This document shows, in pieces, positions 1 through 17,297 of a stretch of 27,567 nt of DNA (position 1 is the stretch's first letter; each line of letters opens with the position of its first letter). The stretch lies in the IMG/VR virus record IMGVR_UViG_3300044961_000427, positions 1-27,567 of that record. The stretch is one strand, 5' to 3'. The stretch is from a virus. The translations under genes were made by a program, and so were the position numbers. Under the pieces are notes generated by a model. That model did not search any database. It saw only the letters and a program-made list of their open reading frames with translations, and was not told the origin of the DNA.

Positions 1-2
1 TG

Positions 3-286: not shown

Positions 287-425
287 CAGGCCCGCCTGCC
301 GGGTCACGGAGTTCCCGCGTGACTTGCAGATGCAGGCGGCGGAGGAGCTCCGCACCGCCCCGGCGCTGCGAACCATGATGGACGCCATGGCGCAGGACCG
401 GGCGTTCAACCGGGCGGTGCGCTGA
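222..425 (+). CDS. Rz1-like outer-membrane lipoprotein spanin (o-spanin)
   Basis: A 67-residue protein with a signal peptide and lipobox: hydrophobic residues 3-15 lead to L13-S14-A15-C16, the lipidation cysteine. The mature part is about 52 residues with two further cysteines near its start. It begins inside the i-spanin gene in a different frame and ends with TGATG, sharing one base with the endolysin start, so translation is probably coupled. Lysis-cassette context plus the lipobox make an o-spanin the best reading. A different small phage lipoprotein is possible. Confidence 0.65.
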   Translation: MRLLPMLAVTALLSACGAAISDRPACRVTEFPRDLQMQAAEELRTAPALRTMMDAMAQDRAFNRAVR

Positions 426-1138
426 TGAGCCTCGATCAGCTCCGCGCCCTGTTCGCGCGCCCGCATCCCGTCCATGACGCGGGCATCGCGCAGGGGACGG
501 TGCCGGTCCAGGCGGTGGGGGAGCCGAACTGGCGCGCCATCCTCGCCGCCGCCGGCATGGTCCGCCCGGAGGCATGGGCGGCCGCCATCGCCGGCCCGGC
601 GGGGCGCTACGCGATCAATAACCGGCTCCGCGCCTGCGCCTTCGCGGCCACCATCGCGCATGAGAGCGGCGGCGGGGCGCGCATGGTCGAGAGCCTGAAC
701 TACCGCCCCGAGGCGCTTCTGGCGACCTGGCCGCATCGGTTCAGCCCGGAGGATGCGCGGCGCATGGGGCGGCTGGACGGCAAGCCGGCCGATCAGCGCG
801 CCATTGCCGAGCGCGCGTATGGCGGGCGTATGGGCAACGGGCCGGAGGGCTCGGGCGATGGCTGGCTCTATCGCGGGCGGGGGCTGATCCAACTTACCGG
901 CCGAGATGCCTACCGCCGAGCGACGCAGGCGACCGGCCTTCCCCTCGAAAATCATCCCGAACTCGCCGAAGAGGAGGGCGTAGCCGCCGAGGTCGCTTGC
1001 TGGACCTGGGGCGCGTGGAAGGGCTGCAACCCGCTGGCCGACGCCGAGGATGTGGAGGGCTGGCGGCGGGCCATCAACGGCGGGCTGAACGGCCTTGCTG
1101 ACGTGAAGGCGCGCTACGCGGCGGCGCTGGCGGCGTGA
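425..1138 (+). CDS. Endolysin, GH19 (chitinase/lysozyme-like) family
   Basis: A 237-residue peptidoglycan hydrolase. The GH19 signature is visible: an AHESGGG segment around residues 79-84 with the presumed catalytic Glu80, then GDGWLYRGRGLIQLTGR (145-160), the hallmark of phage GH19 lysozymes. An extra stretch of about 35 residues precedes the catalytic domain. There is no signal peptide or N-terminal helix, so release to the periplasm should need a holin. Start ATG 425 shares one base with the o-spanin stop. The stop TGA 1136-1138 shares one base with the ATG of a tiny membrane protein. In the cell it cleaves the glycan strands at the end of infection. Confidence 0.88.
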   Translation: MSLDQLRALFARPHPVHDAGIAQGTVPVQAVGEPNWRAILAAAGMVRPEAWAAAIAGPAGRYAINNRLRACAFAATIAHESGGGARMVESLNYRPEALLATWPHRFSPEDARRMGRLDGKPADQRAIAERAYGGRMGNGPEGSGDGWLYRGRGLIQLTGRDAYRRATQATGLPLENHPELAEEEGVAAEVACWTWGAWKGCNPLADAEDVEGWRRAINGGLNGLADVKARYAAALAA

Positions 1139-1248
1139 TGCTGGAAGCCTTTGCCGGGGCGCTGGTCTGGGAGCTTTTGCTTCTCGTCGTGGTGCTGGTG
1201 GCGGCGGCGTTCGGAGCGGGAGTGCTTATGGGTAGGCGCATGCGTTGA
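1138..1248 (+). CDS. 36-residue single-helix membrane protein
   Basis: An ATG overlapping the endolysin stop opens a 36-codon frame. The product is MLEAFAGALVWE followed by a strongly hydrophobic Leu/Val/Ala helix and a basic end (MGRRMR). One transmembrane segment with the positive end inside is predicted. Its place straight after the endolysin suggests a lysis accessory protein, such as a holin or antiholin candidate, but nothing in the sequence proves that. The tRNA begins on the very next base after its stop. Confidence 0.5.
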   Translation: MLEAFAGALVWELLLLVVVLVAAAFGAGVLMGRRMR

Positions 1249-1319
1249 TGGTGCGTAGCCAAGCGGTAAGGCAGCGGGCTTTGATCCCGTCATCCGAGGT
1301 TCGAATCCTCGCGCACCAG
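1249..1319 (+). tRNA. tRNA-Gln (anticodon UUG)
   Basis: A cloverleaf can be folded by hand. The acceptor stem is TGGTGCG (1249-1255) with CGCACCA (1312-1318), discriminator G1319. The D stem is GCC/GGC. The anticodon stem is GCGGG/CCCGT with loop CTTTGAT, anticodon TTG at 1281-1283. There is a 4-nt variable loop, and the T stem is CGAGG/CCTCG with loop TTCGAAT. The following bases are CCG, so the 3' CCA is not fully encoded. Anticodon UUG reads CAA (and CAG by wobble). The gene lies between phage lysis and connector genes, so it appears phage-borne. Confidence 0.93.
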
Positions 1320-1357
1320 CCGCGCAGATGCGGCGCTTAGGAAGGGTGTGGGGAGCG

Positions 1358-1504
1358 ATGGATTGCAACCGCTTCGAGCAATACGGCGACGAGGCATGGA
1401 TGCTTTGGGCGGAGCGCCGGGCGCGTCGGCGCCTCGGCTTGGCGCTGCTCGCCGCGGGGATATCCCTGGCTCTTCTGGCCGGGATGCTTGTTCTGGCGGA
1501 TTGA
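1358..1504 (+). CDS. 48-residue single-helix membrane protein
   Basis: The frame starts at ATG 1358 behind a GGGGAG ribosome-binding site. The N-terminal half is charged and aromatic (MDCNRFEQYGDEAWMLWAER), then an Arg cluster (residues 19-25), then one transmembrane helix of about 20 residues. Orientation should be N-terminus inside. It lies just after the tRNA and before the connector gene. No family recognised. It could be another lysis-timing membrane protein, or unrelated. Confidence 0.45.
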   Translation: MDCNRFEQYGDEAWMLWAERRARRRLGLALLAAGISLALLAGMLVLAD

Positions 1505-1599
1505 AGGCTTCTTTACGTTTCTGTTGGCGGAAAGTAAGCCGACGCGCTATCGCCTTCATAGTGCCTTTCGGCATCGCCGTTTGGGAAGGTATGCGCGCC

Positions 1600-2304
1600 A
1601 TGTTCCCCGATTCCTCCATTCAGGCTCCGGCGCCGGACCCGAGCGAGCCGCTAATCGCGGTGGACGATCTTGCGGCGCTTCTCGGCTTGACGCTTCCGCT
1701 GGGGCCGCCGCTGGATACGCAGGTCGTCTTTGCCGCGCGGGCAGTCGCCGCCGCGATCCGGTCGTATTGCGGGCGCCAGATCGTCCGCGGCGAGTATGCC
1801 GAACGATTCATTGGCGGCTTGCCGGTGGAGCGAGAGGGCGAAGGCGGGCCGCTCTATTGGCGGCTGACGCTGACGGAACGGCCGGTCGGAGAAATTGTCG
1901 AAATAAAGTCCGGATCGCGGCTCCTCAACCCGGAACTGGCGGTCATTCACGGCACGCTCGGGGTCGTCCTTGTCCCGGTTTCCCTGGCCGGCGCGGCGTC
2001 GCCAATCGACGTGACTTATCTAGGCGGCTTCGACCCGCTTCCTGGCGATCTCGCGGCGCTCTACGTCGATCTTTGCCGGCGCCAGTTGGTCACCATGGGC
2101 GCGCCCGTGACCGGCGGCTCCGGCGCGCCGGTCAAGGCCGTGACGGTCGGGGCGCTCAAGATCGACTACGCCGTGAACAGCGTCGATGCCGCCGGCGCAC
2201 TGGTGGGCGGGCCGATGCCGCTCACGGCCGATGCGCTCGCGGCCTACGATCCGATCCTGGGGCAATACAAGTCCGTTCGGATGCTCGCCGCGACGATCTG
2301 CTGA
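1600..2304 (+). CDS. Head-tail connector/adaptor protein (gp6-like)
   Basis: About 234 residues. The start is taken at ATG 1600, ten bases after GGAAGG (1584-1589); ATG 1591 is an alternative too close to that site. The middle carries the usual adaptor-type layout: an Ala-rich helix with a conserved IRSYCGRQI-like segment near residues 53-61, beta strands, then a DLCRRQ helix. It is the first gene of an ordered connector, head-closure, tail-terminator, tail-tube series, which supports the assignment. The family is known to form the ring beneath the portal. The 95 nt upstream (1505-1599) hold no gene and are locally AT-richer, so a late promoter could sit there, but I see no clear -35/-10 pair. 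Confidence 0.6.
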   Translation: MFPDSSIQAPAPDPSEPLIAVDDLAALLGLTLPLGPPLDTQVVFAARAVAAAIRSYCGRQIVRGEYAERFIGGLPVEREGEGGPLYWRLTLTERPVGEIVEIKSGSRLLNPELAVIHGTLGVVLVPVSLAGAASPIDVTYLGGFDPLPGDLAALYVDLCRRQLVTMGAPVTGGSGAPVKAVTVGALKIDYAVNSVDAAGALVGGPMPLTADALAAYDPILGQYKSVRMLAATIC

Positions 2305-2316
2305 CGGGAGGCGGCC

Positions 2317-2643
2317 ATGTCGTTCACGATACCGGGTGACTTCGCCACCATCATCAAGGCCACGATCCAGGGGGCCGGTGAGGACGTGGTGTGGACGCGG
2401 CAGGCGACCGGCGTGGAAACCACGATCCGCGCGTCTGTCCAGCGGCCGGGCTCTTCGCTGCTCGTCGGCGATGCCTTGCAGGAGGGCTTCATCGTCTTCA
2501 CGGCCGGCGATGCCTTCGGCGCCGTCGAGCCCGTGCGCTTCGACCGCCTTACGATCTCGGGAGAGGACCGCGCCATCGAAGAGGCGTTGCCGATCCAGGC
2601 CGGCGGCGTCATCCATGCGTGGCAGTTGCGGGTCTTGGGCTGA
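2317..2643 (+). CDS. Probable head-closure / head-tail joining protein
   Basis: 108 residues, starting 12 nt after the connector stop with GGGAGG upstream. Predicted mostly beta: short strands containing FIVFTAGDAFG and VRFDRLTISG, which suits small barrel-like stopper proteins. Position between the connector and the tail terminator is the main argument for its role in sealing the DNA-filled head and docking the tail. I do not recognise a named family from the residues. Confidence 0.5.
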   Translation: MSFTIPGDFATIIKATIQGAGEDVVWTRQATGVETTIRASVQRPGSSLLVGDALQEGFIVFTAGDAFGAVEPVRFDRLTISGEDRAIEEALPIQAGGVIHAWQLRVLG

Positions 2644-2667
2644 TCCGCCGGAAGGGGAGGCGCCGCC

Positions 2668-3099
2668 ATGGCATCCTACGGGCTTCGGGCCGCGCTCTAT
2701 GCGGCGTGGCCGATCAAGACGCCGGCCATCCGCTACATTCAGACGGAGAACCGCGATCTCCCGCGGACGCCGCCGCTCCCCCTCCCTGACGTGTGGGGGA
2801 CGCTCGCCTTCGAGGTCACGGGGCGGCGCATCCTCACGATGGGCCGCCAGCCTTGGATCGAAGAGCAGGGGCAAGCCATTTTCGTGATCTGCGCGCGCTC
2901 GGGACACGGAGATCAGCCTGGCGTCGAAGCCGCCTCGGCGCTCATGCGCGCTTGGGACGGATGGCGGCACTCCGACGGCATGATGTGGTTCCAGAACGTG
3001 GGCGCGCCGCGGAAACTCTCCGTCGAAGCGGAAGGCGAGTGGTTCCTCTACTCCGTGCCCGCAGAATATCGGGTGCAAGAGCGACCCGTTCTGCCGTAG
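2668..3099 (+). CDS. Probable tail terminator/completion protein (DUF4128-like)
   Basis: 143 residues behind GGGGAGG. It has an N-terminal helix, a conserved-looking stretch around the TEN motif (residues 27-29), and aromatic beta strands ending YSVPAEYRVQER. Proteins of this size immediately upstream of the tail tube gene cap the tail and attach to the head-closure ring. DUF4128 membership is an impression from residue pattern, not a search result. An 86-nt gap follows, with an AGGGGA site before the tube gene. Confidence 0.5.
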   Translation: MASYGLRAALYAAWPIKTPAIRYIQTENRDLPRTPPLPLPDVWGTLAFEVTGRRILTMGRQPWIEEQGQAIFVICARSGHGDQPGVEAASALMRAWDGWRHSDGMMWFQNVGAPRKLSVEAEGEWFLYSVPAEYRVQERPVLP

Positions 3100-3185
3100 A
3101 GAATGCTGCGTGATCCGCCGCCCTTCGAGCGCCTAGGGACGGCGCAGGCCTGCATGGCGCTCCGGCCACGAAAGGGGACGCTGCG

Positions 3186-3869
3186 ATGGCACGCGAATCG
3201 ACGATCAAACTCATGTTCGACCTGTCCGGGAGGACGTGGATCACCTCGACTTTGGATGCCATCACGAATGGCGCCACCACCATCATCACCATGGATGCGC
3301 TCGACGCCGGCATGGCCGCCACGCCCATCGCCTACGCGAAGAACGGCTACCTGTGGATCGACGGCACCGGATGGGAGTCTCTTGACGGGAAACTGCACGT
3401 CATCAGCGCCGCGGACGGCACGGCCAGGACCGTGACCATCAGCACCGATACCTCCGCCGAGACGGCTCCGCTCCCCGCGAGCCTCACGGGGGTGACCGTG
3501 AAATACACCACCTGGACGGACGTGTGCTTGTCGGAATTCACGCCGAACCCGGCCACGCCGTCCGAGATCGACGCCACGACCATGTGCGATACGGAGCGGG
3601 TGAACCTCCCCGGCCTGCCGGGCGCCGGCACCGCCTCGTTCACGGGCATGTTCGATCTCGACGATCCCGGCATGATCGCGCTGCGCGACGCCCAGGCCGA
3701 TGCGGTCGAGCGGTGGCTCGTCGCCAAAACTCGCGGCGGGCAACTCGCGATGTTCTTCGGGGTTGTCTCGTCCTTCACCATGGGCGCGCTCGGGATTGAG
3801 CAGGCCATTCCGTTCACGGGCACGATGACCCTCAAGAAGTCGCCGACCTACGGCCGGACGGTGCCGTGA
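3186..3869 (+). CDS. Major tail tube protein
   Basis: 227 residues. The C-terminal half has the pattern of siphophage tail tube proteins: LSEFTPNPATPSEIDATTMC, then a glycine-rich turn, then FTGMFDLDDPGM and a final beta strand before GTMTLKKSP. The first 110 residues contain a Thr-rich insertion. Its position before the G/GT chaperones and tape measure fits exactly. In lambda this is gpV, which polymerises into the tube around the tape measure. The stop TGA overlaps the next ATG by one base (TGATG at 3867-3871). Confidence 0.78.
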   Translation: MARESTIKLMFDLSGRTWITSTLDAITNGATTIITMDALDAGMAATPIAYAKNGYLWIDGTGWESLDGKLHVISAADGTARTVTISTDTSAETAPLPASLTGVTVKYTTWTDVCLSEFTPNPATPSEIDATTMCDTERVNLPGLPGAGTASFTGMFDLDDPGMIALRDAQADAVERWLVAKTRGGQLAMFFGVVSSFTMGALGIEQAIPFTGTMTLKKSPTYGRTVP

Positions 3870-4183
3870 TGGCGATCCTTCCTGTGCTGCGGGAGATCGA
3901 AGTCTCGGCCCCCGCGTGGTCGGACAAGCCCGTGCGGATGCGGGAACCGACGATCAAGGCATGGCGCGAGGCGTCGCGCGCGGGAGACGATCAGGATCGG
4001 ACGATTGCGCTGCTCGGCTTCGTGGTGCTCGACGAGAACGGCAAGCCCGTTGGCGTCGCGGCCATCGAAGCGGCGCCCCTCGCGGCGTTCGGGCAGTTGG
4101 CGAAGCATCTTCCTGTCCTGATCGGCGAGGCGGAGGAAGAGCCCGGCCCTTTGACCCCCACGAGCGGTTCGTCCACCGCCTAG
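3869..4183 (+). CDS. Tail assembly chaperone G (short product)
   Basis: 104 residues from ATG 3869, sharing one base with the tail-tube stop. It is a small helical/beta protein with a Glu-rich C-terminus (EAEEEPGP). It sits between tail tube and tape measure, where lambda-like phages encode gpG and gpGT. A slippery heptamer CCCTTTG lies in the last thirty bases of the gene, allowing a longer fusion product. The chaperone coats the tape measure during tail assembly and is not part of the virion. Confidence 0.75.
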   Translation: MAILPVLREIEVSAPAWSDKPVRMREPTIKAWREASRAGDDQDRTIALLGFVVLDENGKPVGVAAIEAAPLAAFGQLAKHLPVLIGEAEEEPGPLTPTSGSSTA

Positions 4184-4506
4184 CCCTTTCCCTCGGCGGC
4201 ATGACCGTCGCGGAAATGGAGGCACGAATGTCGGTGGCCGAATTGCAGCGGTGGTCGCGCTTCGAGCGCGAAGAGCCGTTCCTCGGCGAGCGCGTCGAAC
4301 TCATGGGGGGCATCATGTCCTCCGTGATCGCGAACGTGCATCGGGGCAAGAACGCGCCGCCATACGATGCGCTCGACTTCATGCCCATCGTCTCGCGCGA
4401 GCATCATCGTGCTGACGAGGCGGCGAAGCGGGCTCGGCACGGGATGCCGGAGCCCGTGAGCGAAGAGGACGCGATCCTCCAACGGCTGGTGCTGGCCTAT
4501 GGCTGA
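3869..4506 (+). CDS. Tail assembly chaperone GT, made by -1 frameshift
   Basis: The G frame (3869 onward) and the next frame (ending TGA 4504-4506) join by a -1 shift at 4147-4153. The predicted product has 95 G residues plus 117 T residues, about 212 in all. The T part reads DPHERFVHRLALSLGGMTV and then MEARMSVAELQRW, which resembles the GT C-terminal domain (DUF4035-like) seen behind the G gene in many siphophages. T has no plausible start of its own near the junction. The T stop overlaps the next gene by 8 nt. In lambda GT bridges the tape measure and tube subunits. Frameshift efficiency cannot be judged from sequence. Confidence 0.75.
4147..4153 (+). promoter_or_regulatory. -1 programmed frameshift slippery site CCCTTTG
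   Basis: Heptamer C-CCT-TTG fits the X-XXY-YYZ rule in the zero frame of the G gene (codons CCT, TTG). After slipping one base back the tRNAs pair with CCC and TTT, and the next codon is GAC at 4153. It lies exactly where the G frame must hand over to the T frame. Confidence 0.75.
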
Positions 4507-5026
4507 CGGGGAAGTCACGGGCATCACCGAACTGATCCAGCGGTTCGACACGCTGCCGACCCGCTTGAAGCAGCGCGTGCTGCGCGGATGGGCCACGGCG
4601 CAAGGCAATCGGATGGCGGCCATGATGCGGCCAGGCATCCAGGCGGTTGCCTTCAAGACGGGGCGGCTCGTCGGCTCCATCCGCGGCAAGGCGGTGCGCG
4701 CGCCGAAGGCATTGTCGATTTTCGGCGCCATCGCTCGCGCCATCGCCTACTCGTCATCGAAGCACGGCGGCTATGCCTTCAACCCGCTGAATGCCGGGAC
4801 GAAGCCGCGCTACACGAAGGGCGGCATCGCGCGGGATCGCCGGGGGCGGTTCTCGGTCGCCGGGAGCATCCAGCGCGCCGTGGGCGCGCGGGCCTACCGC
4901 GGGCGCGTCACGCCTCGACGCTTCATCGCCGGCATGGCTCCGCACATTCACGCCATGGTCGGTCCCGTGGCCGAGGAAGATCTGGCGAAGCGCATCGAGC
5001 GTGCGCTCGCGAAGAACGGAGGATAG
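4499..5026 (+). CDS. HK97 gp10-like minor tail/neck protein
   Basis: 175 residues, overlapping the GT stop by 8 nt. The N-terminus has the gp10 pattern: GITELIQRFDTLPTRLKQRV, a second helix, then a basic TGRLVGSIRGKA segment corresponding to the usual TGxLrxSI motif near residues 61-71. The middle is very basic (many Arg/Lys, Tyr). The family normally works at the head-tail neck and is encoded before the tail tube. Here it lies between the chaperones and the tape measure, so its role may differ. Confidence 0.6.
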   Translation: MADGEVTGITELIQRFDTLPTRLKQRVLRGWATAQGNRMAAMMRPGIQAVAFKTGRLVGSIRGKAVRAPKALSIFGAIARAIAYSSSKHGGYAFNPLNAGTKPRYTKGGIARDRRGRFSVAGSIQRAVGARAYRGRVTPRRFIAGMAPHIHAMVGPVAEEDLAKRIERALAKNGG

Positions 5027-5031
5027 CCCCC

Positions 5032-7542
5032 GTGGCCAGCGCCGATCTCGCAATCACGCTCTCCGTCCGGATGGGCAACCTCGAAGCGGGGTTGAACAAG
5101 GCGAACAGCGCGTTGCGCGCGATGGAGCGGCAGTCGAAAGAGACGGGCCGCGCCGTCGCGGGGATCGGGCAGTCCTTCCGCGCGATGGAGGCGCCGGCCA
5201 CGGCGGCCTTCGGCGCCATCCGGGCGTCCATCGCGGGCGTCATCGCGCTCGTGGCCGGCGGCGGCCTCGTGGCGGGTATCTCCGCTGCCCTCTCGCGCGT
5301 GAATGCGCTCGCCGATGCCGCGGCTCAGGTCGGCGTCGAGGTCGAGGCGCTGCAAACGATCCAGATCGGCTTCGAGGAAGCGGGCTCGTCGGCGCAGACG
5401 GCTGCAATGGGCCTGGGCCGGCTCGGCGCGCTGATCGGCGATGCCGTGCGCGGCGGGAAGGAAGCGCAGGAGACCTTCGTGAGACTCGGCGTGTCCTTCC
5501 GGAACGTCGATGGCTCTGCGCGCACCACGGTCCAGGCCTTCAACGATCTCCGGGCGAGGATCGCGGGCGCTTCGTCGGAGCAGGAGAAACTAAGCATTGC
5601 GGCCGAGGTCTTCGGCGCGAGGGGCGCGCGCGCCGCCGTCGCGGCGATGGCGGAAATGGGCGACAGCGTGGAAGCCCTCACGGCGCGCTACTCGGCGATG
5701 GGCCTCGTGGTCAGCGGCGAGACGGCGACGGCGCTCGACAACATCGGCACGTCCTTCGCCAACCTCGGGCGCGCGATCTCCGTGGTGCTGGCCGACTCGC
5801 TCGCCGCAGTCGCGCCAACGATCCAGGCGGTGGTCGATGGCGCGCGCCGCGCCTTCACGTCCATCGGCCCGCAGATCGTCCAGGGCTTCACCGAGGTCAC
5901 GGCATCCATCGTGGCCTTCGTCCAGAAGGCGGTGGAGGAGTTCCGCCCGCTCTGGGACGCCTTCGCGGGCGTGGTGCGCGAACTCGCTCCCGTGGTCGCG
6001 GCCATCGTGCGGCTGGTCGGCCAGTCGTTCTACAAGGTCGCGCAAGACCTCCAACCCATCGCTGTGTGGATCATCAACACGCTGCGGACGATCATCGGGT
6101 GGGTCACGGAGGCGCTGAAAGCCCTCGGCATCATGGAGCGCAGCGCGCTCGAAGTGGCCGAACGCGGGTTCTCGGCGGCATCCGAGGCGGCGACGCGCGC
6201 GACGAACAGCCTCATGCAAGCCGAGGAACGGCTGGCGAATGCCCGCCGCGTGAATGGGTCGCTCGTCGCGATCCGCTCGGCGGAGGCGGAGGTCGCGCGG
6301 CTCCGGGAGCAGGCGGCGAGGGCGACGGCCGCGCAGGCAACAGCGCAGGAGGAATTGAACCGCGTGCGGGCGAGCCAGCCCGGGCAAGGGACCGTGCCCA
6401 CGGCGCCCACGGTGGCGGCGCCGCCGCAGCCGGCGGGAGCCCCGCCCCGCGTGACGGCAGGCGGCGCACAGCGGGAGACGGAAGCGCAGCGCGAGGCGAA
6501 CCGGCTGCTCCGCGAATCCTATCGGGACCTGATGAAAATTCAGGAGGCTTCGCTTGATCCACAGACGCGGATGGTGGCGTCGCTCGGCGAGGTCACGACC
6601 GCGCTGCGGGAGCAGGATCGGGCGTTCCAGGCCTATATGGCGGCCTATGGCCGGGCCCCCGCGAACATTGAGCCCGTGCGCCTCTCGCTCGAAGCCCTCA
6701 CCATGCATGCGGAGACGGCGGCCGAACGGATGATGCGGTCGGCCGAGGCGCTCGGGCAGCCGGCCGAGCAGATCATGGAGCAGATCAGCGCGGCGGTGCG
6801 CGCCTATGCCGAGGAACTCGCACGCGCCGGCCGAATCACCACCGATCAGATCGACCGCATGGTCGCGGCTGCGCAGAACGCGGCGAACCGCGTGCAATCG
6901 ACCGGCTTCATGGCCGGGTTCCGCTCCGGCGCAGGGGTCGATCTCACGAAGCCGGCGCCCGACTTTATGACGGAGATCGGCCGAGGCTTCGGGCAGATCA
7001 GCACGCAGGTGTTCGACGATCTCGCCTCGTCGCTCGACAAGGTGGCCTCCGGCGCCATGACGGCGGGAGAAGCCATGAGCCGCTTTGCGCTGGACTTCGT
7101 GAAGGCCGTGGCAATGATGATCGCGAAGGCGGCGGCGCTCGCGGCAATCCAGTTTCTGATTCGGTCGATCTTCGGCACGCCATCCATGGGCGGAGCGGCA
7201 AATGGCTCCGGTGCTGCGTCCTTCGGCGGCTTCCGTGCCGCGGGCGGCCCGGTATCGGGCGGGCGCGCCTACATCGTCGGCGAGAGGGGACCTGAACTCT
7301 TCGTGCCTTCGGGCTCCGGGCGGATCGTCCCGAACGGCGCAGGGGGCCCCACCGTGCAGATCGTGAACAACGCGCCGGGCGTCGTGGTCGAGCAGGCCCG
7401 CCGGGACGATCAGATCGTGGCGATTGCCGTGAACCTCTCCCGGCAGCGCGTCGCGACCGACTTCGCGGAGAGCACGCGCACCGGCTACGGGACGTTCGCC
7501 GAGTCCATGTCCTCGCGTTACGCACTGAGGCGCCGGGTATGA
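5032..7542 (+). CDS. Tail tape measure protein
   Basis: 836 residues from GTG 5032, nine bases after GGAGG at the end of the previous gene. Long helical, Ala-rich regions have hydrophobic segments near residues 60-85, 320-370 and 685-715. A coiled-coil stretch around 385-445 is followed by a Pro/Thr linker. The C-terminus holds GGPVSGGRAYIVGERGPELF, the typical end signature of tape measure proteins. The protein sets tail length and is ejected with the DNA. By the rule of about 0.15 nm per residue, this gives a tail of roughly 125 nm (inference). The stop overlaps the next start as ATGA. Confidence 0.92.
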   Translation: MASADLAITLSVRMGNLEAGLNKANSALRAMERQSKETGRAVAGIGQSFRAMEAPATAAFGAIRASIAGVIALVAGGGLVAGISAALSRVNALADAAAQVGVEVEALQTIQIGFEEAGSSAQTAAMGLGRLGALIGDAVRGGKEAQETFVRLGVSFRNVDGSARTTVQAFNDLRARIAGASSEQEKLSIAAEVFGARGARAAVAAMAEMGDSVEALTARYSAMGLVVSGETATALDNIGTSFANLGRAISVVLADSLAAVAPTIQAVVDGARRAFTSIGPQIVQGFTEVTASIVAFVQKAVEEFRPLWDAFAGVVRELAPVVAAIVRLVGQSFYKVAQDLQPIAVWIINTLRTIIGWVTEALKALGIMERSALEVAERGFSAASEAATRATNSLMQAEERLANARRVNGSLVAIRSAEAEVARLREQAARATAAQATAQEELNRVRASQPGQGTVPTAPTVAAPPQPAGAPPRVTAGGAQRETEAQREANRLLRESYRDLMKIQEASLDPQTRMVASLGEVTTALREQDRAFQAYMAAYGRAPANIEPVRLSLEALTMHAETAAERMMRSAEALGQPAEQIMEQISAAVRAYAEELARAGRITTDQIDRMVAAAQNAANRVQSTGFMAGFRSGAGVDLTKPAPDFMTEIGRGFGQISTQVFDDLASSLDKVASGAMTAGEAMSRFALDFVKAVAMMIAKAAALAAIQFLIRSIFGTPSMGGAANGSGAASFGGFRAAGGPVSGGRAYIVGERGPELFVPSGSGRIVPNGAGGPTVQIVNNAPGVVVEQARRDDQIVAIAVNLSRQRVATDFAESTRTGYGTFAESMSSRYALRRRV

Positions 7543-7925
7543 GGACGACCAGCATCGAATGGCCCGAGGCGGCTCTCGGCTGCCCGCTCCGCGGTTCCTT
7601 CCGGGCGCTCGTGCAATCGCGCTTCGCCGCGGCATCGCTCAACCCTGGGATCGGCACCTACGGCGCGGATCGCATGGAGGAAGTGCGCGTGCACGAAGTC
7701 GGCTTCGTGTGGTCGCTCGCGCAACTCGCGGACTTCGAGGAATTCCACGATGTGACCCTCTCGCGCGGCATGCGCTGGTTCATGTTCAAGGTTCCCGTCG
7801 CCGGGCTCGTGGTGCCGACCTACTCGCACATCGAAGGCGGCTACCGCGTGACCGATACCGATGGCTGGACCGCCGTGAACTTCACGATCCAATCCTTTCG
7901 CCGCGTGGGGAATCAGACGACATGA
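7539..7925 (+). CDS. Distal tail protein, paralogue 1
   Basis: 128 residues, ATGA overlap with the tape measure. Near the N-terminus it reads AALGCPLRGSF, and in the middle DFEEFHDVTLSRGMRWFMFKV. Both stretches recur in similar form in the next gene, so the two are paralogues. Genes at this place, straight after the tape measure, encode distal tail components linking the tube to the baseplate (lambda gpM or Dit-like). I recognise the position more than the family. Confidence 0.6.
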   Translation: MRTTSIEWPEAALGCPLRGSFRALVQSRFAAASLNPGIGTYGADRMEEVRVHEVGFVWSLAQLADFEEFHDVTLSRGMRWFMFKVPVAGLVVPTYSHIEGGYRVTDTDGWTAVNFTIQSFRRVGNQTT

Positions 7926-8443
7926 GCGGGTCGTTGGGCACATGGCCGGCCGCGCTCGGCTGCCCGCTCCGGGCGGCCTATGCCGGGCAGGCCGATGCGG
8001 CGTTCTCAACCGTCGAAGTCGCGGACGGGCCGCCTCGGCATCGGCTGATCACCGACATGGATCGGCGGCGCTGGACGGTCGAGTTCGCGTGGACCGACAC
8101 GCAAGTGCAGGTCTTCGAGTCGTGGGTGGCCGCTGACCTCGGGATGGGCCTCTCGTGGTTCCGCATGCCGCAACTCACCGGGGCGGGCATGACGGAGCAC
8201 TTCTGCCATCTCGTCGGCGACTACACGATTGAACGCCTTTCGGATTCCGTGACGCATTGGCGTTGCGCCTTCGAGGTCGAGGCGATTGCAACGTGGCCTG
8301 GCACGATCCCGCCCATTGAATTCCTCGCCGACTACGATGCGCGCCGCGCGCCAGATGCGCTGCCGACCGACATTGTGGATGCCATGAGCGCGGCGAGCAC
8401 GCCGCCCGCGGATCGTATCGACGCCCTCGTGCCGGGAGCCTGA
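7922..8443 (+). CDS. Distal tail protein, paralogue 2
   Basis: 173 residues, ATGA overlap with paralogue 1. It shares the ALGCPLR start, the acidic/aromatic helix (QVQVFESWVAADLGMGLSWF) and the following strand with the upstream protein. It then has an extra C-terminal segment of about 40 residues rich in Asp, Ala and Pro. It is likely another distal tail/baseplate ring component. The stop is followed one base later by the next ATG. Confidence 0.6.
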   Translation: MSGSLGTWPAALGCPLRAAYAGQADAAFSTVEVADGPPRHRLITDMDRRRWTVEFAWTDTQVQVFESWVAADLGMGLSWFRMPQLTGAGMTEHFCHLVGDYTIERLSDSVTHWRCAFEVEAIATWPGTIPPIEFLADYDARRAPDALPTDIVDAMSAASTPPADRIDALVPGA

Positions 8444-8444
8444 C

Positions 8445-8963
8445 ATGCCGACCAGCAGCGCAGACGATGACTATGCCCGGTGGCTCGCGACGCCGGCCCC
8501 GACCGGCCAATATGTCGAGACGCTCGAATTCGTCGGCGGGATCATGGGCAGCGGCATCCGCATCTGCAACCGGCGCCGCGTGGCGCTACAGGCCTTCGAC
8601 GAGAGCGGCGTGCCGCGGACCTTCCTCCCGATCCCGTTCACGATCTCGAAGCCGGCCATACGCAACTCGTCCGAAGTGCGCGTGGACGCGCGGATCGACG
8701 CGTTGGATGGCTCGCTGCTCGCGCTCCTCGGCCGCGCGCGCGCCATCGACCTGAACCAGCAGATCACGGTGTCCTTGCGTGCCTATCTCGACCCAACGAT
8801 CCTCGACCGGCCGCTATGGCGCGTGCCCTTCCGCTTCCGGGTCGAAAGCATGAAGGCGTCGCTCGACGTGATCGAGGTCGTCATGGTCGGCGGGCGGCTG
8901 CCGAACAAGCGGGCCGGCATCCACTACGGCATCGACCGGTTCGTCGGGCTCCGGCCCTTCTGA
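8445..8963 (+). CDS. DUF1833-like tail protein
   Basis: 172 residues. The pattern of an N-terminal ETLEFVGG strand, an IPFTISKPAIRN segment, a paired DARIDALDGSLLALLG stretch, and a final VMVGGRLPNKR resembles the DUF1833 family. This family is commonly encoded between the distal tail protein and the NlpC/P60 gene in siphophages; lambda has gpL in this place. Probable baseplate hub or wedge component. One-base TGATG overlap with the hydrolase gene. Confidence 0.65.
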   Translation: MPTSSADDDYARWLATPAPTGQYVETLEFVGGIMGSGIRICNRRRVALQAFDESGVPRTFLPIPFTISKPAIRNSSEVRVDARIDALDGSLLALLGRARAIDLNQQITVSLRAYLDPTILDRPLWRVPFRFRVESMKASLDVIEVVMVGGRLPNKRAGIHYGIDRFVGLRPF

Positions 8964-9337
8964 TGCGCTCGCGGTGGTTCGCCCTCGTCGGCCGGCCCTA
9001 CGGCTTCCCGAGCCGCCCGCCGGAGACGTTCGACTGCTGGACCCTCGTGAAGTATGTGCGAACGGCGGAGGGGCTTCCTTGCCCGCTCCCCTTCGATGAT
9101 CAGGCAGCATGGTGCGTGCCGGGCAATCTCGCCCGCGCCACGGCCGAAGCGCGCGCCATGTGGCGCCCCCGCGCGCCGGGCCACGATCTGGACGTGGTCG
9201 TGCTTGAGCCAGCGCATGTCGGGGTCGCCCTCGGCGGCGGCGTGCTCCATGCGCTCGCGCGCAATTCAGGCGTGGTATGGACTTCTCCCGCTGTCTTGCG
9301 GCGGCATTGGCCAGCAGCCGAATGGTGGACCGTATGA
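8963..9337 (+). CDS. NlpC/P60-family tail peptidase
   Basis: 124 residues from ATG 8963 overlapping the previous stop. FDCWTLVKYV places the catalytic cysteine at residue 25. HVGVALGGGVLHA provides the catalytic histidine at 85 and a second polar residue, His96. This Cys/His arrangement is diagnostic for NlpC/P60 endopeptidases, equivalent to the C-terminal domain of lambda gpK. It should cut peptidoglycan cross-links during DNA injection or help tail-tip assembly. It overlaps the hub gene by 4 nt (ATGA). Confidence 0.85.
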   Translation: MRSRWFALVGRPYGFPSRPPETFDCWTLVKYVRTAEGLPCPLPFDDQAAWCVPGNLARATAEARAMWRPRAPGHDLDVVVLEPAHVGVALGGGVLHALARNSGVVWTSPAVLRRHWPAAEWWTV

Positions 9338-12300
9338 ACGCCCTCACCGCGATCCGCACATGCCGGATCATCGTCACCGATCCCTTCGAGCAGCGGCAGG
9401 ACGTGCACGATGTGGCGCCGGGCGGGACGCTCGCCGATGCACTCATGTCGATTTCGCCGGGTCGGTGGGGCGGCGCGCACATCGAACTCTATGACGGCGC
9501 GGTCACGGCGGCGTCCGAGATTCCGCTCGACGATGCCCGCGCGATCCTTCTGGAACCGGGCCGCGTCTATCACGTCATCGCCGTGCCGGCGGAGGCCTAT
9601 TCGATCTCGGCGGCGGTGATCGCCGCAGTCGGCGTCTCGGCCACATCGGCGGCCGGCGTCGCAATCACCATCGCCGTCTACATCGCCATCATGGCCGTGA
9701 CGATGGCGATCTCCTACTTGGTCACGATGCTCCTGGCGCCGGGCAAGCAGGCGAACAAGGCTCTCTCGCCCGAGGATCAGCCGTCCGCGCTGAACTCGCT
9801 TTCTCCGCCGCGCAACATGTTCCGCCTCGGCGCGCGCGTGCCCGAGATTTACGGGCGCATCCGCTTCTGGCCGGACCTGATCTTCGCGGCCACGGCGCAA
9901 TGGTTCCCGGTGCAATGGACGGCGAACATCGCACCGAGCGTGAACGAGAACACGGTCCCAACATCGCGCCAGGAAGTCTCTGCGGTCTATTGCCTCGGGC
10001 GCGGCCACTTCGAGACGACCGACTTCCGATTCGGCGACAGCCCCGTGTCGAATGCCAACGGGATCGTCACGGTCTATCCGCCTGGCGTCACGCTGCCATC
10101 GTGGCTCACGGCCTCCTATGCCGCGGCCGATCTCTCCCGCTTCGAACTCGGCGGCCTCGGCTCGCCCACGATGTGGTCCCCGTGGTTCACGATCCCGGCC
10201 GACGAGATCGACCGCATCGACGTTCAACTCTCATTCCCGCACGGCCTGATCCATCTCGCGTCGGGCCGCAAGGTCCCGCCCGGCTACAACTCGGAATCGC
10301 TGGCCATCATCATCCTGGAAGGCCAGCGTCTGGATGAAGATGACAACGTGATCCAGACGATCAGCCACACCGAGATTTATCGCGCGCGCACGAGGAACGA
10401 ACTCCGGGTCACGATGACTCGCGCTCTGCCGCGCGGCCGGTGGCGCTTCCGCGTCGCGGAGACGCTCGACTGGACCCCGTATCCGAACGGCAACGTCTAT
10501 ACGAACATCAACAAGACCGTGCTCGAAGGCATGGTTGGGCATCGCTACCTCACGCCCGAAGAACGCACCTTCGCGCACGAGACGTGCATCATCGTGAAGG
10601 CGAGCAACGTCAACAATCCGGCCTTGCAGAATCTCGAAGCGTTCAACCTCATGGCGGCGCGCGTGCTTCCGACCCAGGACGTGCCCGGCGTGATGACGGC
10701 GCCTCGCGCCGACGCGCGCTGGATCACGGCGGCGATCAACACGCTGACCGATCCCTTCATCTGCAACTACGCGATGGACGAAGTGGATTGGCCGTCGCTC
10801 CATGCCGTGCAGGCCTCGCTTGAGTCCTACCCGGACGGCTTCGACGAGGGCGAATTCAACGGCGCGCTCGACCGCCAGATGACCGCCGACGAGCAACTCA
10901 TGCTCGTGGCACGCAAGGCTCGCGCCTATGTCTTCCCCTCGGGCGGCAAGATGACGTTCGTCCGTGACGAGCGGCGCACGGCGATCTCCGCGCTGTTCAA
11001 TCGGCGCAACCGCCTTGCCGGCCGCGGCGAGGTCGGGCTCGGGCTGCAATTCGCGCAGCGCGACGATCCGGATGGCGTGACGATCTCGTTCATCAACGCG
11101 CTCAAAGGCTACCGCCAGGACACTTACACCTATCCCGAGGGCGTGACGCCGATCGCTCCGCTGTCGATTGATCTCGTCGGCGCGGTCTATCCTCACGAGG
11201 TCTGCCGGCGCGCGCGCTTTGAAATGGCGCAGATCAGGTATCGTCGCCGCTCCATGCCGCTCCGCGTCACGGAGGAAGGGCAGTTGCTGATGCCGATGGA
11301 TCGCGTCGGCGTGGTGATGCCGTGGTCTGAGGGAGCCATCGACGGCGAGGTTCTGGAAGTCGATGGCATGGACCTTCGGATGGACCGGCCGATCCCAACG
11401 CTCACGGCCGACGCAAGAATTCGCATTCGGCGTGAGGACGGCCGCGCGACGCAACTTCTCTCGCTCACGAACTCGGTGCGCGGGCCGGAGTGGGTGACGC
11501 TCGCGGGGGTGAGCGGCGACCTCGAATTTCCTGTCTTCGCTCCGTCCGACACGCGGCAGATCGGGACGCTCTACAACATCACCACGTCCGATGCCTTCGA
11601 TCAGCAGACCTTTTGGTTCGTCACCGGCGCACAGATCGATGATTCGGGCGTCACCCTCTCGCTCGCGAACGATGCCGACGAGGTATACCAACTCTCGGAC
11701 GACCTCTTGATCCCGTGCGTCGATCCGCCGGCCTTCGCCTTCTCGCTCCTGAGCGATGGGGGCAACGATGGCTCGGTCTTCGGCGGCAGCCTCACCATGA
11801 CGGTGCCGCAATGCGATCCCGGCGACATTCTGTTCGCCGTCCTCGGCAGCTCCGGGCCCTACTACGACCCTCCCGCGGGATGGACCGTCATCGACCGCGT
11901 GGATGATCCCACGACCACCCTCGGCGGGCGACGCAACATCCTGGCGTGCTACCGCATTGCGACCGAGTCAGAGCCGGCTACCTACACCTTCCCTCGAAGC
12001 GGCGGCTCCCTCTCGGGCGGCCAGATCACGCGCATCGGCTGCAATCGGCACGTTGGCTCGCTCGTCTATGGCGGCAAGGCGACCCATATCGCCCCGACCG
12101 CAACCGGGCGCGTCGTCACGCATCCCGGCATTGCGGTGGACCAGCCGAAGTCGATCATCATCGTCGGAACGGTGATCGGCGCGACGGTCTATGCCGACCC
12201 GTGGCCGCAACTCGCCGCGGCCGATGCGCCGGGCGTGTGGGTCAAGCAGACCCATATGTCGTGGGTTCCGGGGGCGCAGCCGGTTTATGCGGCCACGGTC

Positions 12301-12459
12301 CATTGCCTTACGCCGCCGCCCGACTTCGTGGGGCACACCGGGCAGATCACGATGGAGATTCCGGCGAACTCGAACCCGGCGAACAACAACGTGTTCATGT
12401 TCTCCGTCTTCCGCTTCTACTACGACGCTTCGACCGGCGGGACGCTCACGCCGAAATGA
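9334..12459 (+). CDS. Central tail hub / host-specificity J-like protein
   Basis: 1041 residues from ATG 9334 (ATGA overlap; ATG 9322 is an in-frame alternative). Residues 1-85 resemble the gpI-like N-terminal module. Residues 90-135 form a hydrophobic hairpin before LLAPGKQANKA, as in gpI proteins. A J-like body follows, with GARVPEIYGRIRFWPDL as in tail-hub proteins. From about residue 800 a beta-rich domain appears (DPPAGWTVIDRV; CYRIATESEPATYTF), like adhesin modules on phage hubs. The protein therefore looks like a fusion of gpI and J functions with a C-terminal receptor-binding domain. It forms the tail tip and probably contacts the host receptor. Confidence 0.82.
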   Translation: MNALTAIRTCRIIVTDPFEQRQDVHDVAPGGTLADALMSISPGRWGGAHIELYDGAVTAASEIPLDDARAILLEPGRVYHVIAVPAEAYSISAAVIAAVGVSATSAAGVAITIAVYIAIMAVTMAISYLVTMLLAPGKQANKALSPEDQPSALNSLSPPRNMFRLGARVPEIYGRIRFWPDLIFAATAQWFPVQWTANIAPSVNENTVPTSRQEVSAVYCLGRGHFETTDFRFGDSPVSNANGIVTVYPPGVTLPSWLTASYAAADLSRFELGGLGSPTMWSPWFTIPADEIDRIDVQLSFPHGLIHLASGRKVPPGYNSESLAIIILEGQRLDEDDNVIQTISHTEIYRARTRNELRVTMTRALPRGRWRFRVAETLDWTPYPNGNVYTNINKTVLEGMVGHRYLTPEERTFAHETCIIVKASNVNNPALQNLEAFNLMAARVLPTQDVPGVMTAPRADARWITAAINTLTDPFICNYAMDEVDWPSLHAVQASLESYPDGFDEGEFNGALDRQMTADEQLMLVARKARAYVFPSGGKMTFVRDERRTAISALFNRRNRLAGRGEVGLGLQFAQRDDPDGVTISFINALKGYRQDTYTYPEGVTPIAPLSIDLVGAVYPHEVCRRARFEMAQIRYRRRSMPLRVTEEGQLLMPMDRVGVVMPWSEGAIDGEVLEVDGMDLRMDRPIPTLTADARIRIRREDGRATQLLSLTNSVRGPEWVTLAGVSGDLEFPVFAPSDTRQIGTLYNITTSDAFDQQTFWFVTGAQIDDSGVTLSLANDADEVYQLSDDLLIPCVDPPAFAFSLLSDGGNDGSVFGGSLTMTVPQCDPGDILFAVLGSSGPYYDPPAGWTVIDRVDDPTTTLGGRRNILACYRIATESEPATYTFPRSGGSLSGGQITRIGCNRHVGSLVYGGKATHIAPTATGRVVTHPGIAVDQPKSIIIVGTVIGATVYADPWPQLAAADAPGVWVKQTHMSWVPGAQPVYAATVHCLTPPPDFVGHTGQITMEIPANSNPANNNVFMFSVFRFYYDASTGGTLTPK

Positions 12460-12477
12460 CCCACGGAGGCTAGAGCC

Positions 12478-13638: not shown

Positions 13639-13641
13639 TCG

Positions 13642-14470: not shown

Positions 14471-14471
14471 G

Positions 14472-16079
14472 TCAGCCTCGCGGGTTCAGCCGCGCGGCGA
14501 ACGCGGCTTCGACCTTGGCGCCGAGGTCCGGGCGCTCGGCCTTGATGCGCTGGACTCGCGCTCGGATGGACCCGTTGTTCACGTAGTTGGTCCGCAAGTC
14601 CTCAAGCGTGGCCTTGGCGGCATCTTCGAGCAGATCGGCGACCCACTTCTCGTCCGGGTCCATCGGCTGCGGAGCCGAAGGTTCCGGGCCGGGCTGCGCG
14701 GCGCCCGCTGGCTCGTCTGGCTCTGCTGCTTCGGCGAGAATCTCCGCAGCTGCGGCATTCTCGTAGGCTTCGGCGAGCCCATCCGCATTGAAGTCCGCGA
14801 GCGCCTCCCGCTTGGCCGGATCATCCGCGGCCTGCCACAGAGCGACGTAGCCCTGCGCGAACTCGACGGGGCCGGCGCACGGATTGCCCTCGGCAGGATC
14901 GCCATACGCATCGACGAGCGCATGTGGAAAGACCGGCGGCGGGGGCTCCGGCGCGCGGGAGGGCTTGCGGGAGCGCGGGGCCGCTTCGCGCGCGCGCTCC
15001 TGGGCCGGCGGGGGAGGCGGGGGCGGAGGCTCCGGAGCCGCAGAAGGCGGATCGAAGACGGCGCCGGGGAACGCCTGCCGCTGGCGCCCTTCGTCCGGAG
15101 CCGGGCCGGCGGCATAGCCATCGTCATCGTCATCCGGCGCCGAAGCGGCGGTTACCGCGGCGGCCACATAGTCGCCATCGGAGGCGTCGATCACGGTGCC
15201 CCATTCGATGTCGCGGCGCCGCTCTTGCGCCTCGTCGATCTCGATCACCGACGCCAACTCGACGGAGCGCGGCAGCCACTTCGAGCCGGCGCGGAACGCG
15301 GTCTTGCGGGCCATCGCGATCTCATGCTTGACCCACGGCGCTTCCGTCCACGCGGCGGGCAGCCGGCGTCCCTGGCTTTCCGCCTCCTCTTTCATCGAGA
15401 GGGCGAGGCGGTAGGCTTGCGAATTGTCGCGGATCGCAAGCACGTCCTCATAGGGCATAACCTCGAACGCAAACCCGTCCTTCAGCTTCGCCATCATGTA
15501 GGCATGCGTGGGACGAGCGCCGCGCGCCGCGGCGGCGCCCTTCGGGCGGTGCCGAAGATGCGCGTCGGTGCCGTATTCGAACGAGAAGTCGTCCCCGGCG
15601 AACACGACATTGGCCGAGATCGAAGTGACGAGCGGCGAGCGATAGGAGAGGTCGAGCAAGCCGGGATACCCGAAGATCAACTGCACTTCGACGCCGGCTT
15701 CCTCCCGCCTCCGCGTCTGCGGGTTCCACTTGGTCCGTTTGAACGGGATCAGGTGGACGTGTTGCAGCGGCGTGTTCGGCTCAAGCCCGACCTGCGAGCA
15801 GGTCAAGAACGCGCCGATCAGGCTGCGAATGTCGGCCTTGGCGAGCAGCGGCGCGCGCTGGATTGCGCCGGCCATCATGCGGAGCATGCGGTCAGGAGTC
15901 ATGTGGCGCGGGAGCGATTCGGCGACGCGCGTGCGGAACTCCGCGTTCTTGAACAGCTGGTCGAGCGTCGCGACCTGCTTCAACGGCAGATGCGAGAGGC
16001 GCGCCGCGTGCGGCGCGGCGAGGTTCGTCCGCGGCGGCGGATGCTCGCCCGGCCGCGGGTGTTGCGGTGTCGTGTTCAT
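14472..16079 (-). CDS. recT: RecT-family single-strand annealing protein, long form
   Basis: 535 residues. Residues 35-285 carry the RecT pattern: TPDRMLRMMAGAIQR, then LLAKADIRSLIGAFLTCSQVGL, HVHLIPFKRT, VQLIFGYPGLLDLSYRS and WVKHEIAMARKTAFR. RecT anneals single-stranded DNA in phage recombination. The usual RecT is about 270 residues. Here an acidic/Pro-rich linker (305-385, including eight prolines in a row) and a C-terminal helical domain (475-535) are added. ATG 16079 overlaps the upstream stop as ATGA. No RecE/YqaJ-type exonuclease is visible among the neighbours. Confidence 0.88.
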   Translation of the reverse strand: MNTTPQHPRPGEHPPPRTNLAAPHAARLSHLPLKQVATLDQLFKNAEFRTRVAESLPRHMTPDRMLRMMAGAIQRAPLLAKADIRSLIGAFLTCSQVGLEPNTPLQHVHLIPFKRTKWNPQTRRREEAGVEVQLIFGYPGLLDLSYRSPLVTSISANVVFAGDDFSFEYGTDAHLRHRPKGAAAARGARPTHAYMMAKLKDGFAFEVMPYEDVLAIRDNSQAYRLALSMKEEAESQGRRLPAAWTEAPWVKHEIAMARKTAFRAGSKWLPRSVELASVIEIDEAQERRRDIEWGTVIDASDGDYVAAAVTAASAPDDDDDGYAAGPAPDEGRQRQAFPGAVFDPPSAAPEPPPPPPPPAQERAREAAPRSRKPSRAPEPPPPVFPHALVDAYGDPAEGNPCAGPVEFAQGYVALWQAADDPAKREALADFNADGLAEAYENAAAAEILAEAAEPDEPAGAAQPGPEPSAPQPMDPDEKWVADLLEDAAKATLEDLRTNYVNNGSIRARVQRIKAERPDLGAKVEAAFAARLNPRG

Positions 16080-16246: not shown

Positions 16247-16473
16247 CGGCCGACCCCCAAGACGAACGCCGCGCTCGCCACGCCCGCGACGAACCCGAAG
16301 ATTTCGCTCGGCGTGAAGGGCCGGGCGAAGCCGCACCGCCACGCGAAATAGACGAGCGCGGAGGTCGCGAGCGCCTTCGCCAAGGCGCCGGTCACGAGCA
16401 TCGCGCCGAAGGTCACGAGCCCGATCAGCACGGCGATGCAGGCGAGGGGCTCTGCCGGATGGCGCGCACTCAC
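16243..16473 (-). CDS. Two-helix membrane protein (76 aa)
   Basis: GTG start at 16473 overlapping the previous stop. There are two hydrophobic spans at about residues 9-48 (with a short break) and a third at 58-74, separated by an Arg/Pro loop, so two to three transmembrane helices are likely. A membrane protein in a recombination operon is unexpected, but the overlaps on both sides show it is translated as part of the operon. No family recognised. Confidence 0.5.
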   Translation of the reverse strand: MSARHPAEPLACIAVLIGLVTFGAMLVTGALAKALATSALVYFAWRCGFARPFTPSEIFGFVAGVASAAFVLGVGR

Positions 16474-17297
16474 CGGACCAGCGCCTTCGTCACGATGGTG
16501 ATCCGCACGCCGGGGATCGGCTGCTGCGGCGGCTGCGCTTCGAGCCTGCGGCGCAACTCCGCCTTGGCTTCCGGCGTCGCGAACATCGCCCGGAGCGCCG
16601 CGCGGATGCGGCTGTGATCGACCACGAGGTATTCGCGCGGGATGGATGCCTCGTCCACGACCTCGAATTCCAGCGTTTCCTTCGCCGTGGCGACCGTGCC
16701 GAGATCGGAGTGCGTCCGCACGAGATCGGCCGGCGATCCGGCGGCCGTGTCCTCAGCACGGCCGGCGCGCGCGGCGGCGCGCTGCGCCTTGGCGACGGCA
16801 TCCTCGGCGTCCTCCGAGGGCGCATCCGAGAACACGGTCGCGGCGGCGGCGGCGGCGGCGCGGGCGGCTTCCTCGCGCGCCCTCCGCGCGGCTTCCTCTG
16901 CCGCCTTTCGCTTCTCCGCGGCGACGCGCGCCTGGTAGGCGTCGAGCACGCGCTGAATGGCGGCCATGGGCGCGCCGAGCGGCTCCATGAGTTCGCGGAA
17001 CCACCCGTCGATCTCGCGCCCGCCGTCGAGGAACGGCGCCTTGGCTTCCTTGCGACGATCCTCGGCGGTGCGGCTCGCGGCCTTCGCCATCCGAAGGTTG
17101 TCCGCGAATGCCAGCATCTGCTCTTCGGTGTCGATCTGCGGCACGGCCGCGATCTGCTCGGCAAGGGCGCGCGCCAACTCGCCGACGCGCTCACGGAGGG
17201 ACGCGAACTCGAAATCGAGCCACGCCCGGATTTGCTCGGCGTCGAGCGGACGAGGCGGGGGCGGCGCGTTGTGGCCGAAAATGGACGAGCCGCTCAT
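16470..17297 (-). CDS. Coiled-coil phage protein of the recombination operon (275 aa)
   Basis: Start ATG 17297 with AGGAG nine bases upstream. Helical throughout: residues 19-55, then a conserved-looking stretch 60-118 (ADNLRMAKAASRTAEDRRKE; GWFRELMEPLGAP), and an Ala/Glu/Arg coiled coil at 119-156. The C-terminal part is more globular (LEFEVVDEASIPREYLVVDH; PIPGVRITI). Proteins of this type are frequent next to phage recT genes but have no agreed function. It is not recognisable as an exonuclease. The stop and the next start share GTGA. Confidence 0.6.
   Translation of the reverse strand: MSGSSIFGHNAPPPPRPLDAEQIRAWLDFEFASLRERVGELARALAEQIAAVPQIDTEEQMLAFADNLRMAKAASRTAEDRRKEAKAPFLDGGREIDGWFRELMEPLGAPMAAIQRVLDAYQARVAAEKRKAAEEAARRAREEAARAAAAAAATVFSDAPSEDAEDAVAKAQRAAARAGRAEDTAAGSPADLVRTHSDLGTVATAKETLEFEVVDEASIPREYLVVDHSRIRAALRAMFATPEAKAELRRRLEAQPPQQPIPGVRITIVTKALVR

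What the first reader, a model, noticed from the sequence alone, without database searches (positions are those of the whole stretch)
1175..11847. AGCT is almost completely avoided in the tail module
By hand scan I find no AGCT from about 1175 to 11847, and about ten in the whole window, where composition would give around eighty. Codon choice explains how: Glu-Leu is written GAA-CTN and Gln-Leu CAA-CTN again and again (for example near 3730, 5980, 6810, 7710, 8170, 9480, 10140, 10390, 10890, 11690), instead of the G-ending codons usual in GC-rich genomes. AGCT is the target of AluI-type restriction systems, so this looks like long selection to escape such an enzyme. Three AGCT sites lie in the first 1.2 kb, so the lysis module may be a later arrival.
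Basis: partly seen in the sequence, partly recalled or inferred. Interest (0 to 1): 0.65.

Follow-up and report, generated by a model that had tools for sequence, protein, structure and literature searches.

The report
Phage genome purged of restriction sites
This bacterial virus has removed nearly all copies of AGCT and of several other short mirror-symmetric DNA words from its whole genome, most likely to escape several bacterial DNA-cutting enzymes; the phenomenon is known, but here it is unusually broad and sharply defined.

Summary
The count is right: 11 AGCT in the window against about 65-67 expected, and none from 1176 to 11847. The deficit is not a property of the tail module. The window belongs to a ~41 kb circularly permuted phage genome that holds only 13 AGCT in all; given 13 sites, a 10.7 kb gap is unremarkable (P=0.33). 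It is not AGCT alone either. Against synonymous-codon shuffles, AGCT is 12/72, GTAC 3/47, CGATCG 1/33, RGATCY 2/37 (all members), CTCGAG 1/18, GTCGAC 2/15, ATCGAT 1/12, while other GATC and TCGA contexts are mostly in excess. The closest relatives point to Acetobacteraceae (Roseomonas/Belnapia group) hosts, whose DNA and prophages have normal AGCT (0.84-1.17). Best reading: a phage without recognisable methyltransferase or integrase, selected against several orthodox Type II restriction enzymes, one of them AGCT-specific. No AGCT enzyme was identified in a host. The 'lysis module arrived later' idea is not supported. A side observation may be new: the phage carries tRNA-Gln(UUG), and in its structural genes writes every Gln-Leu(CTN) as CAA-CTN (11/11); a relative with no tRNA detected almost never uses CAA in its structural genes and keeps AGCT precisely there.

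The parts
1176..11847 (.). Longest AGCT-free stretch (head-tail connector, major tail, tape measure, tail tip genes)
   Evidence: gap length not exceptional once the genome-wide depletion is taken into account
346..349 (.). residual AGCT, in GAG-CTC (Glu-Leu)
438..441 (.). residual AGCT, in CAG-CTC (Gln-Leu), endolysin gene
1172..1175 (.). residual AGCT, outside the predicted genes used for the codon tests
11848..11851 (.). residual AGCT, in AGC-TCC (Ser-Ser), tail tip gene
14748..14751 (.). residual AGCT, in GCA-GCT (Ala-Ala), RecT gene on the minus strand
15484..15487 (.). residual AGCT, in AAG-CTG (Lys-Leu), RecT gene
15955..15958 (.). residual AGCT, in CAG-CTG (Gln-Leu), RecT gene
23829..23832 (.). 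residual AGCT, in CAG-CTT (Gln-Leu)
24085..24088 (.). residual AGCT, in GAG-CTT (Glu-Leu)
24878..24881 (.). residual AGCT, in AGC-TGC (Ser-Cys)
26685..26688 (.). residual AGCT, in a stretch not shared with the other record of this phage
1249..1321 (+). tRNA-Gln, anticodon UUG (reads CAA)
   Evidence: ARAGORN; 83-87% identical to tRNA-Gln of six Acetobacteraceae genomes, up to 88% in the family
425..1138 (+). endolysin
   Evidence: PHROG 181, E=5e-66
1348..2304 (+). head-tail adaptor
   Evidence: PHROG 442
3186..3869 (+). major tail protein; 63% identical to relative L008
4588..7542 (+). tape measure protein
9277..12459 (+). tail tip (J-like) protein; 45% identical to L008
14472..16079 (-). RecT-like annealing protein
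   Evidence: Pfam RecT E=1.6e-32
16470..17594 (-). exonuclease
   Evidence: PHROG 10477

Best explanation
The phage has been selected over a long time to lose the recognition sites of several orthodox Type II restriction enzymes met in its hosts, probably Acetobacteraceae of the Roseomonas/Belnapia group. AGCT (AluI-type) is one of the targets; GTAC (RsaI-type), RGATCY (BstYI/XhoII-type), CGATCG (PvuI-type), CTCGAG (XhoI-type), GTCGAC (SalI-type) and ATCGAT (ClaI-type) are others. The depletion is written mainly by synonymous codon choice. Shown: the depletion of sharply delimited palindromes, in every module and in all three frames, and its absence in putative host DNA. Inferred: that restriction is the selecting agent, the enzyme identities, and the host.
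For: Codon-shuffle test: AGCT 12/72, GTAC 3/47, CGATCG 1/33, CTCGAG 1/18, GTCGAC 2/15, ATCGAT 1/12, GGATCC 0/12. Sharp motif limits: within NGATCN, all RGATCY members (2/37) and CGATCG (1/33) are purged while AGATCG, CGATCC, AGATCA, GGATCA and CGATCA are in excess (1.3-1.7); mutational or dinucleotide bias would not do this. Putative hosts and prophages: AGCT o/e 0.84-1.17, CGATCG about 0.6-1.4. Frame-resolved AGCT 2/21, 7/40, 3/11 in the phage against 180/185, 619/631, 52/50 in hosts. Uniform over modules, 0.04-0.32. Relative L008 avoids a partly different set: GTAC 0/38, RGATCY 2/20, AGCT 26/63, and TCGA 38/97 in its first 14.8 kb, but CGATCG normal 18/15. Lowest A/T-containing hexamer-palindrome content of 125 loci analysed and fourth lowest AGCT. 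No integrase or DNA methyltransferase among the ORFs scanned. Published: avoidance concerns orthodox Type II sites and elimination is commoner in non-temperate dsDNA phages (PMC6286503).
Against: No AGCT-specific restriction gene was identified in any host, and the host rests on terminase kinship (57-59%), a DUF3489 stretch (about 80% over 81 residues) and the tRNA, not on a spacer, prophage or isolate. Some motifs that are low in the phage (GGGCCC, CCCGGG, CGTACG, ACGCGT, GTAC in part) are low in Acetobacteraceae DNA too, so those are not evidence for phage-specific selection.
Confidence: 0.85

Rival explanations
1. The AGCT deficit follows from base composition, codon usage or neighbour-dependent mutation shared with the host.
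For: CTAG, GTAC, CCCGGG, GGGCCC, CGTACG and ACGCGT are low in Acetobacteraceae DNA as well.
Against: AGCT is normal in host DNA (851/870) and in related prophages (627/618); codon-preserving shuffles reject it (z about -10); neighbouring words that share sub-words are in excess.
Confidence: 0.06
2. Host-wide avoidance: the real host itself lacks AGCT because it has carried an AGCT restriction system for long, and the phage only follows host composition.
For: Three loci in the panel show strong AGCT avoidance: L080 (Ferrovum myxofaciens, 1/29), L053 (Ferrovum MAG, 8/52) and L054 (unclassified proteobacterial MAG, 7/51), so avoidance in cellular DNA or prophages exists.
Against: Those loci have 55-57% GC and normal GTAC (0.83-1.17), their terminases are only about 40% identical, and none of the Acetobacteraceae loci sampled shows it.
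Confidence: 0.07
3. The pressure is not on double-stranded DNA cutting but on some other palindrome-directed process, such as regulatory protein binding or a phage nuclease that degrades host DNA.
For: Only that the selecting agent is not shown directly.
Against: Many unrelated 4- and 6-base palindromes are affected with the precision of Type II specificities, and relatives have different sets.
Confidence: 0.02

Closest known systems
Type II restriction-site avoidance in non-temperate dsDNA phages (Rusinov et al. 2018, PMC6286503)
   Same: Loss of palindromic Type II sites across the genome; near-elimination of several sites; no methyltransferase or integrase found.
   Different: Several motifs at once with exact limits (RGATCY plus CGATCG within GATC); host and enzymes not known; a codon-level limit seen by comparison with a relative.
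AluI-type (AGCT) restriction-modification
   Same: The depleted tetramer is the AluI recognition word (established knowledge).
   Different: No AGCT enzyme gene was found here; it is one of several implied specificities.

Membership tests
Restriction-site avoidance (anti-restriction by site loss) | Site count well below expectation given composition and coding | tested here: met
Restriction-site avoidance (anti-restriction by site loss) | Specific to palindromic Type II words, neighbours unaffected | tested here: met
   RGATCY and CGATCG purged, most other NGATCN in excess
Restriction-site avoidance (anti-restriction by site loss) | Not shared with host DNA | tested here: met
   for the putative Acetobacteraceae hosts; the host itself is inferred
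Restriction-site avoidance (anti-restriction by site loss) | Host carries the matching restriction enzyme | tested here: inconclusive
   XhoI-type (CTCGAG) genes over the cut-off in 2 of 150 family genomes, one of them Roseicella; XcyI-type in none, but that search had no positive control; AGCT enzymes not searchable by a named family here
Restriction-site avoidance (anti-restriction by site loss) | Phage DNA not protected by its own methyltransferase or modified bases | tested here: inconclusive
   No methyltransferase among the scanned ORFs; several ORFs have no assigned function and not every small ORF was scanned
   GTAC 0.06, CGATCG 0.03, RGATCY 0.05 are lower than AGCT 0.17

The most novel reading that the evidence does not exclude
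The phage tRNA-Gln(UUG) pays the codon cost of restriction-site avoidance: it lets abundant structural genes use CAA before CTN so that AGCT can be removed from Gln-Leu pairs. In the phage's structural genes all 11 Gln-CTN pairs use CAA, against 22% CAA before other codons. In relative L008, in whose 20.5 kb record no such tRNA was found, structural genes almost never use CAA, and 21 of 23 AGCT sites in the first 14.8 kb examined sit in CAG-CTN or AAG-CTN, whereas Glu-CTN is rewritten to GAA in 19 of 20 cases. At the four conserved Gln-Leu pairs of the tail tip protein the phage has CAA-CTN (three) or CAG-TTG (one), L008 has CAG-CTN each time.
Probability: 0.25. Interest if true: 0.6.

Novelty: new member of a known kind. 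Interest (0 to 1): 0.42.

Why it matters
The set of missing words is a readable record of the restriction enzymes that this uncultured phage lineage has met, and can be used to look for its host. The comparison with L008 suggests that codon and tRNA supply limit how far a phage can purge a site, which would give phage tRNA genes a testable role in anti-restriction.

Tried and rejected
Single-enzyme AGCT model: rejected, since other motifs are lower. Tail-module-specific depletion and late arrival of the lysis module: rejected by scan statistics and per-module counts. Degenerate AvaI-type CYCGRG: its mixed members are in excess (51/41), so CTCGAG and CCCGGG are separate. Overlap with GATC methylation as the reason for spared TCGA sites in L008: sites in ATCGA/TCGAT without GATC are spared as well, not resolved. 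Host by DNA similarity: 398 Acetobacteraceae genomes searched with window 1-20000; the listed matches are short or distant (tRNA-Gln up to 88%, a RecT-region stretch of about 600 bases at 67%, pieces of window 161-422 at 71-76%), no prophage or spacer of this phage. Tail-tip alignment in genome contigs: no relative. Literature on phage tRNAs together with restriction-site avoidance: no paper with the exact terms.

Full report
Observation. AGCT occurs 11 times in the 27,567-base window; dinucleotide shuffles give 67.0 (sd 8.0) and Markov models 64.6-66.1. It is absent from 1176 to 11847. It has the most negative z-score of all tetramers (-7.7). So the hand count was right.

The genome. A second record of the same phage (IMGVR_UViG_3300045922_000286, 41,062 bases) is 99.2-100% identical over the shared parts, and the window runs across its ends: window 1-18781 matches 22278-41058 and window 18770 onward matches position 1 onward. 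The genome is therefore circularly permuted or circular and about 41 kb long. It encodes terminase, a fused protease-capsid protein, portal, collagen-like fibre, endolysin, tail genes, RecT, exonuclease, RuvC-like resolvase and replication proteins; no integrase or DNA methyltransferase was seen in the ORFs scanned. The whole genome has 13 AGCT. A gap of 10.7 kb among 13 sites is unremarkable (P=0.33), and so is the cluster of three near the endolysin (P=0.25). The deficit is thus genome-wide and not a mark of the tail module.

Coding control. Synonymous codons were shuffled within each gene, which keeps the proteins and the codon usage. AGCT: 12 observed, 72 expected (a first run with a hand-made gene list, two of whose genes were out of frame, gave 12 against 72.6). 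The deficit holds in all three frames (2/21, 7/40, 3/11). Glu before CTN is GAA 25/28 (35% elsewhere), Gln is CAA 12/15 (23% elsewhere), Ser before T is AGC 2/83 (30% elsewhere); hosts show no such shift.

More than AGCT. The same test shows GTAC 3/47, CGATCG 1/33, CTCGAG 1/18, GTCGAC 2/15, ATCGAT 1/12, GACGTC 2/13 and RGATCY 2/37, the last including the non-palindromic members AGATCC/GGATCT (1/20). The limits are sharp: GATC as a whole is in slight excess (1.16), because AGATCG, CGATCC, AGATCA, GGATCA and CGATCA are at 1.3-1.7 while RGATCY and CGATCG are gone. Such precision is what Type II enzymes impose. GAYRTC (6/33), CTNNAG (24/78) and CASTG (8/28) are also low in the phage and not, or much less, in hosts.

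Host control. The terminase is 57-59% identical to prophage terminases of Roseicella, Pseudoroseomonas, Roseomonas, Belnapia and Dankookia, and at most 43% to the rest of the listed hits; a stretch of the DUF5131/DUF3489 protein is about 80% identical to Belnapia loci over 81 residues; the tRNA-Gln is 83-87% identical to theirs. In chromosomal DNA of six genomes of this group AGCT is 0.89-1.17 of expectation, in nine prophage loci 0.84-1.16. CGATCG is 0.6-1.07 in hosts. Some motifs (GGGCCC, CCCGGG, CGTACG, ACGCGT, partly GTAC) are low in hosts too and are not counted as phage-specific. In a panel of 125 loci of at least 8 kb (viral contigs and genome loci gathered through the terminase, plus this phage and L008) the phage has the lowest content of A/T-containing hexamer palindromes (0.52) and the fourth-lowest AGCT.

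A relative. L008 (IMGVR_UViG_3300032144_000046; major tail protein 63%, tail tip 45% identical) avoids GTAC (0/38) and RGATCY (2/20), also TCGA (38/97 in its first 14.8 kb), and AGCT in part (26/63), but not CGATCG (18/15). So related phages carry overlapping but different sets, as expected from different restriction histories.

Codon limit. In the 14.8 kb of L008 examined first, 21 of 23 AGCT sites lie in CAG-CTN (14) or AAG-CTN (7), while Glu-CTN is GAA 19/20. Its structural genes hardly use CAA. No tRNA was found in that 14.8 kb, and the tRNA-Gln had no match in its whole 20.5 kb record, which may be a fragment. The window's phage carries tRNA-Gln(UUG) at 1249-1321 and in its structural genes has 11 CAA-CTN and no CAG-CTN, against 46 CAA and 164 CAG before other codons. 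At four conserved Gln-Leu pairs of the tail tip protein the phage has CAA-CTN or CAG-TTG where L008 has CAG-CTN. This rests on two genomes and is a correlation; hosts must also read CAA, so the tRNA could at most raise supply.

Mechanism. The best-supported account is selection against cutting by several orthodox Type II restriction enzymes, one with AGCT specificity. Published surveys find this kind of avoidance restricted almost wholly to orthodox Type II sites, with elimination commoner in non-temperate dsDNA phages (PMC6286503). XhoI-type genes (CTCGAG) exist in the putative host family (2 of 150 genomes, including Roseicella); XcyI-type genes rang in none, without a positive control; an AGCT enzyme could not be searched by a named family. 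Enzyme names given for motifs are from general knowledge.

Verdict. The tRNA link is the part that could be new.

Noticed in passing
window 1249-1321: Single tRNA-Gln(UUG) gene between the endolysin and the head-tail genes; its codon CAA is the one that AGCT avoidance needs at Gln-Leu.
   Followed up: partly
window 23931-23942 (other record 5162-6173): The other record has about 1.0 kb more here, within and after a DUF932 gene; the junction carries a 12-base direct repeat (TGGTCGGCGCGA), so the window variant looks like a deletion between short repeats, or an assembly difference.
   Followed up: partly
window 26372-27435: A 1.06 kb stretch not found in the other record, which has about 0.5 kb there and an unbroken DUF5131-DUF3489 gene; in the window that gene is interrupted.
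   Followed up: partly
window 18783-18801: A run of about 17 C in front of a gene, at the point where the other record begins.
   Followed up: no
L080 (whole locus), L053, L054: Ferrovum (L080, L053) and one unclassified proteobacterial MAG locus (L054) have strong AGCT avoidance (1/29, 8/52, 7/51) with normal GTAC: candidates for hosts with a long-standing AGCT restriction system.
   Followed up: no
L126, L127, L117: Terminase-related viral contigs (51-55% identical) eliminate GTAC (0/25, 0/47, 2/28) but keep AGCT, so GTAC avoidance is common in this phage group.
   Followed up: no
L194 (relative L008, whole record): TCGA is avoided except next to A/T that gives ATCGA or TCGAT; the reason is not clear (overlap with GATC does not explain all).
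   Followed up: partly
whole phage genome: GAYRTC, CTNNAG and CASTG are also depleted (0.18, 0.31, 0.28) and not, or much less, in hosts; the first two match no restriction specificity that I recall, CASTG is the TspRI word.
   Followed up: no
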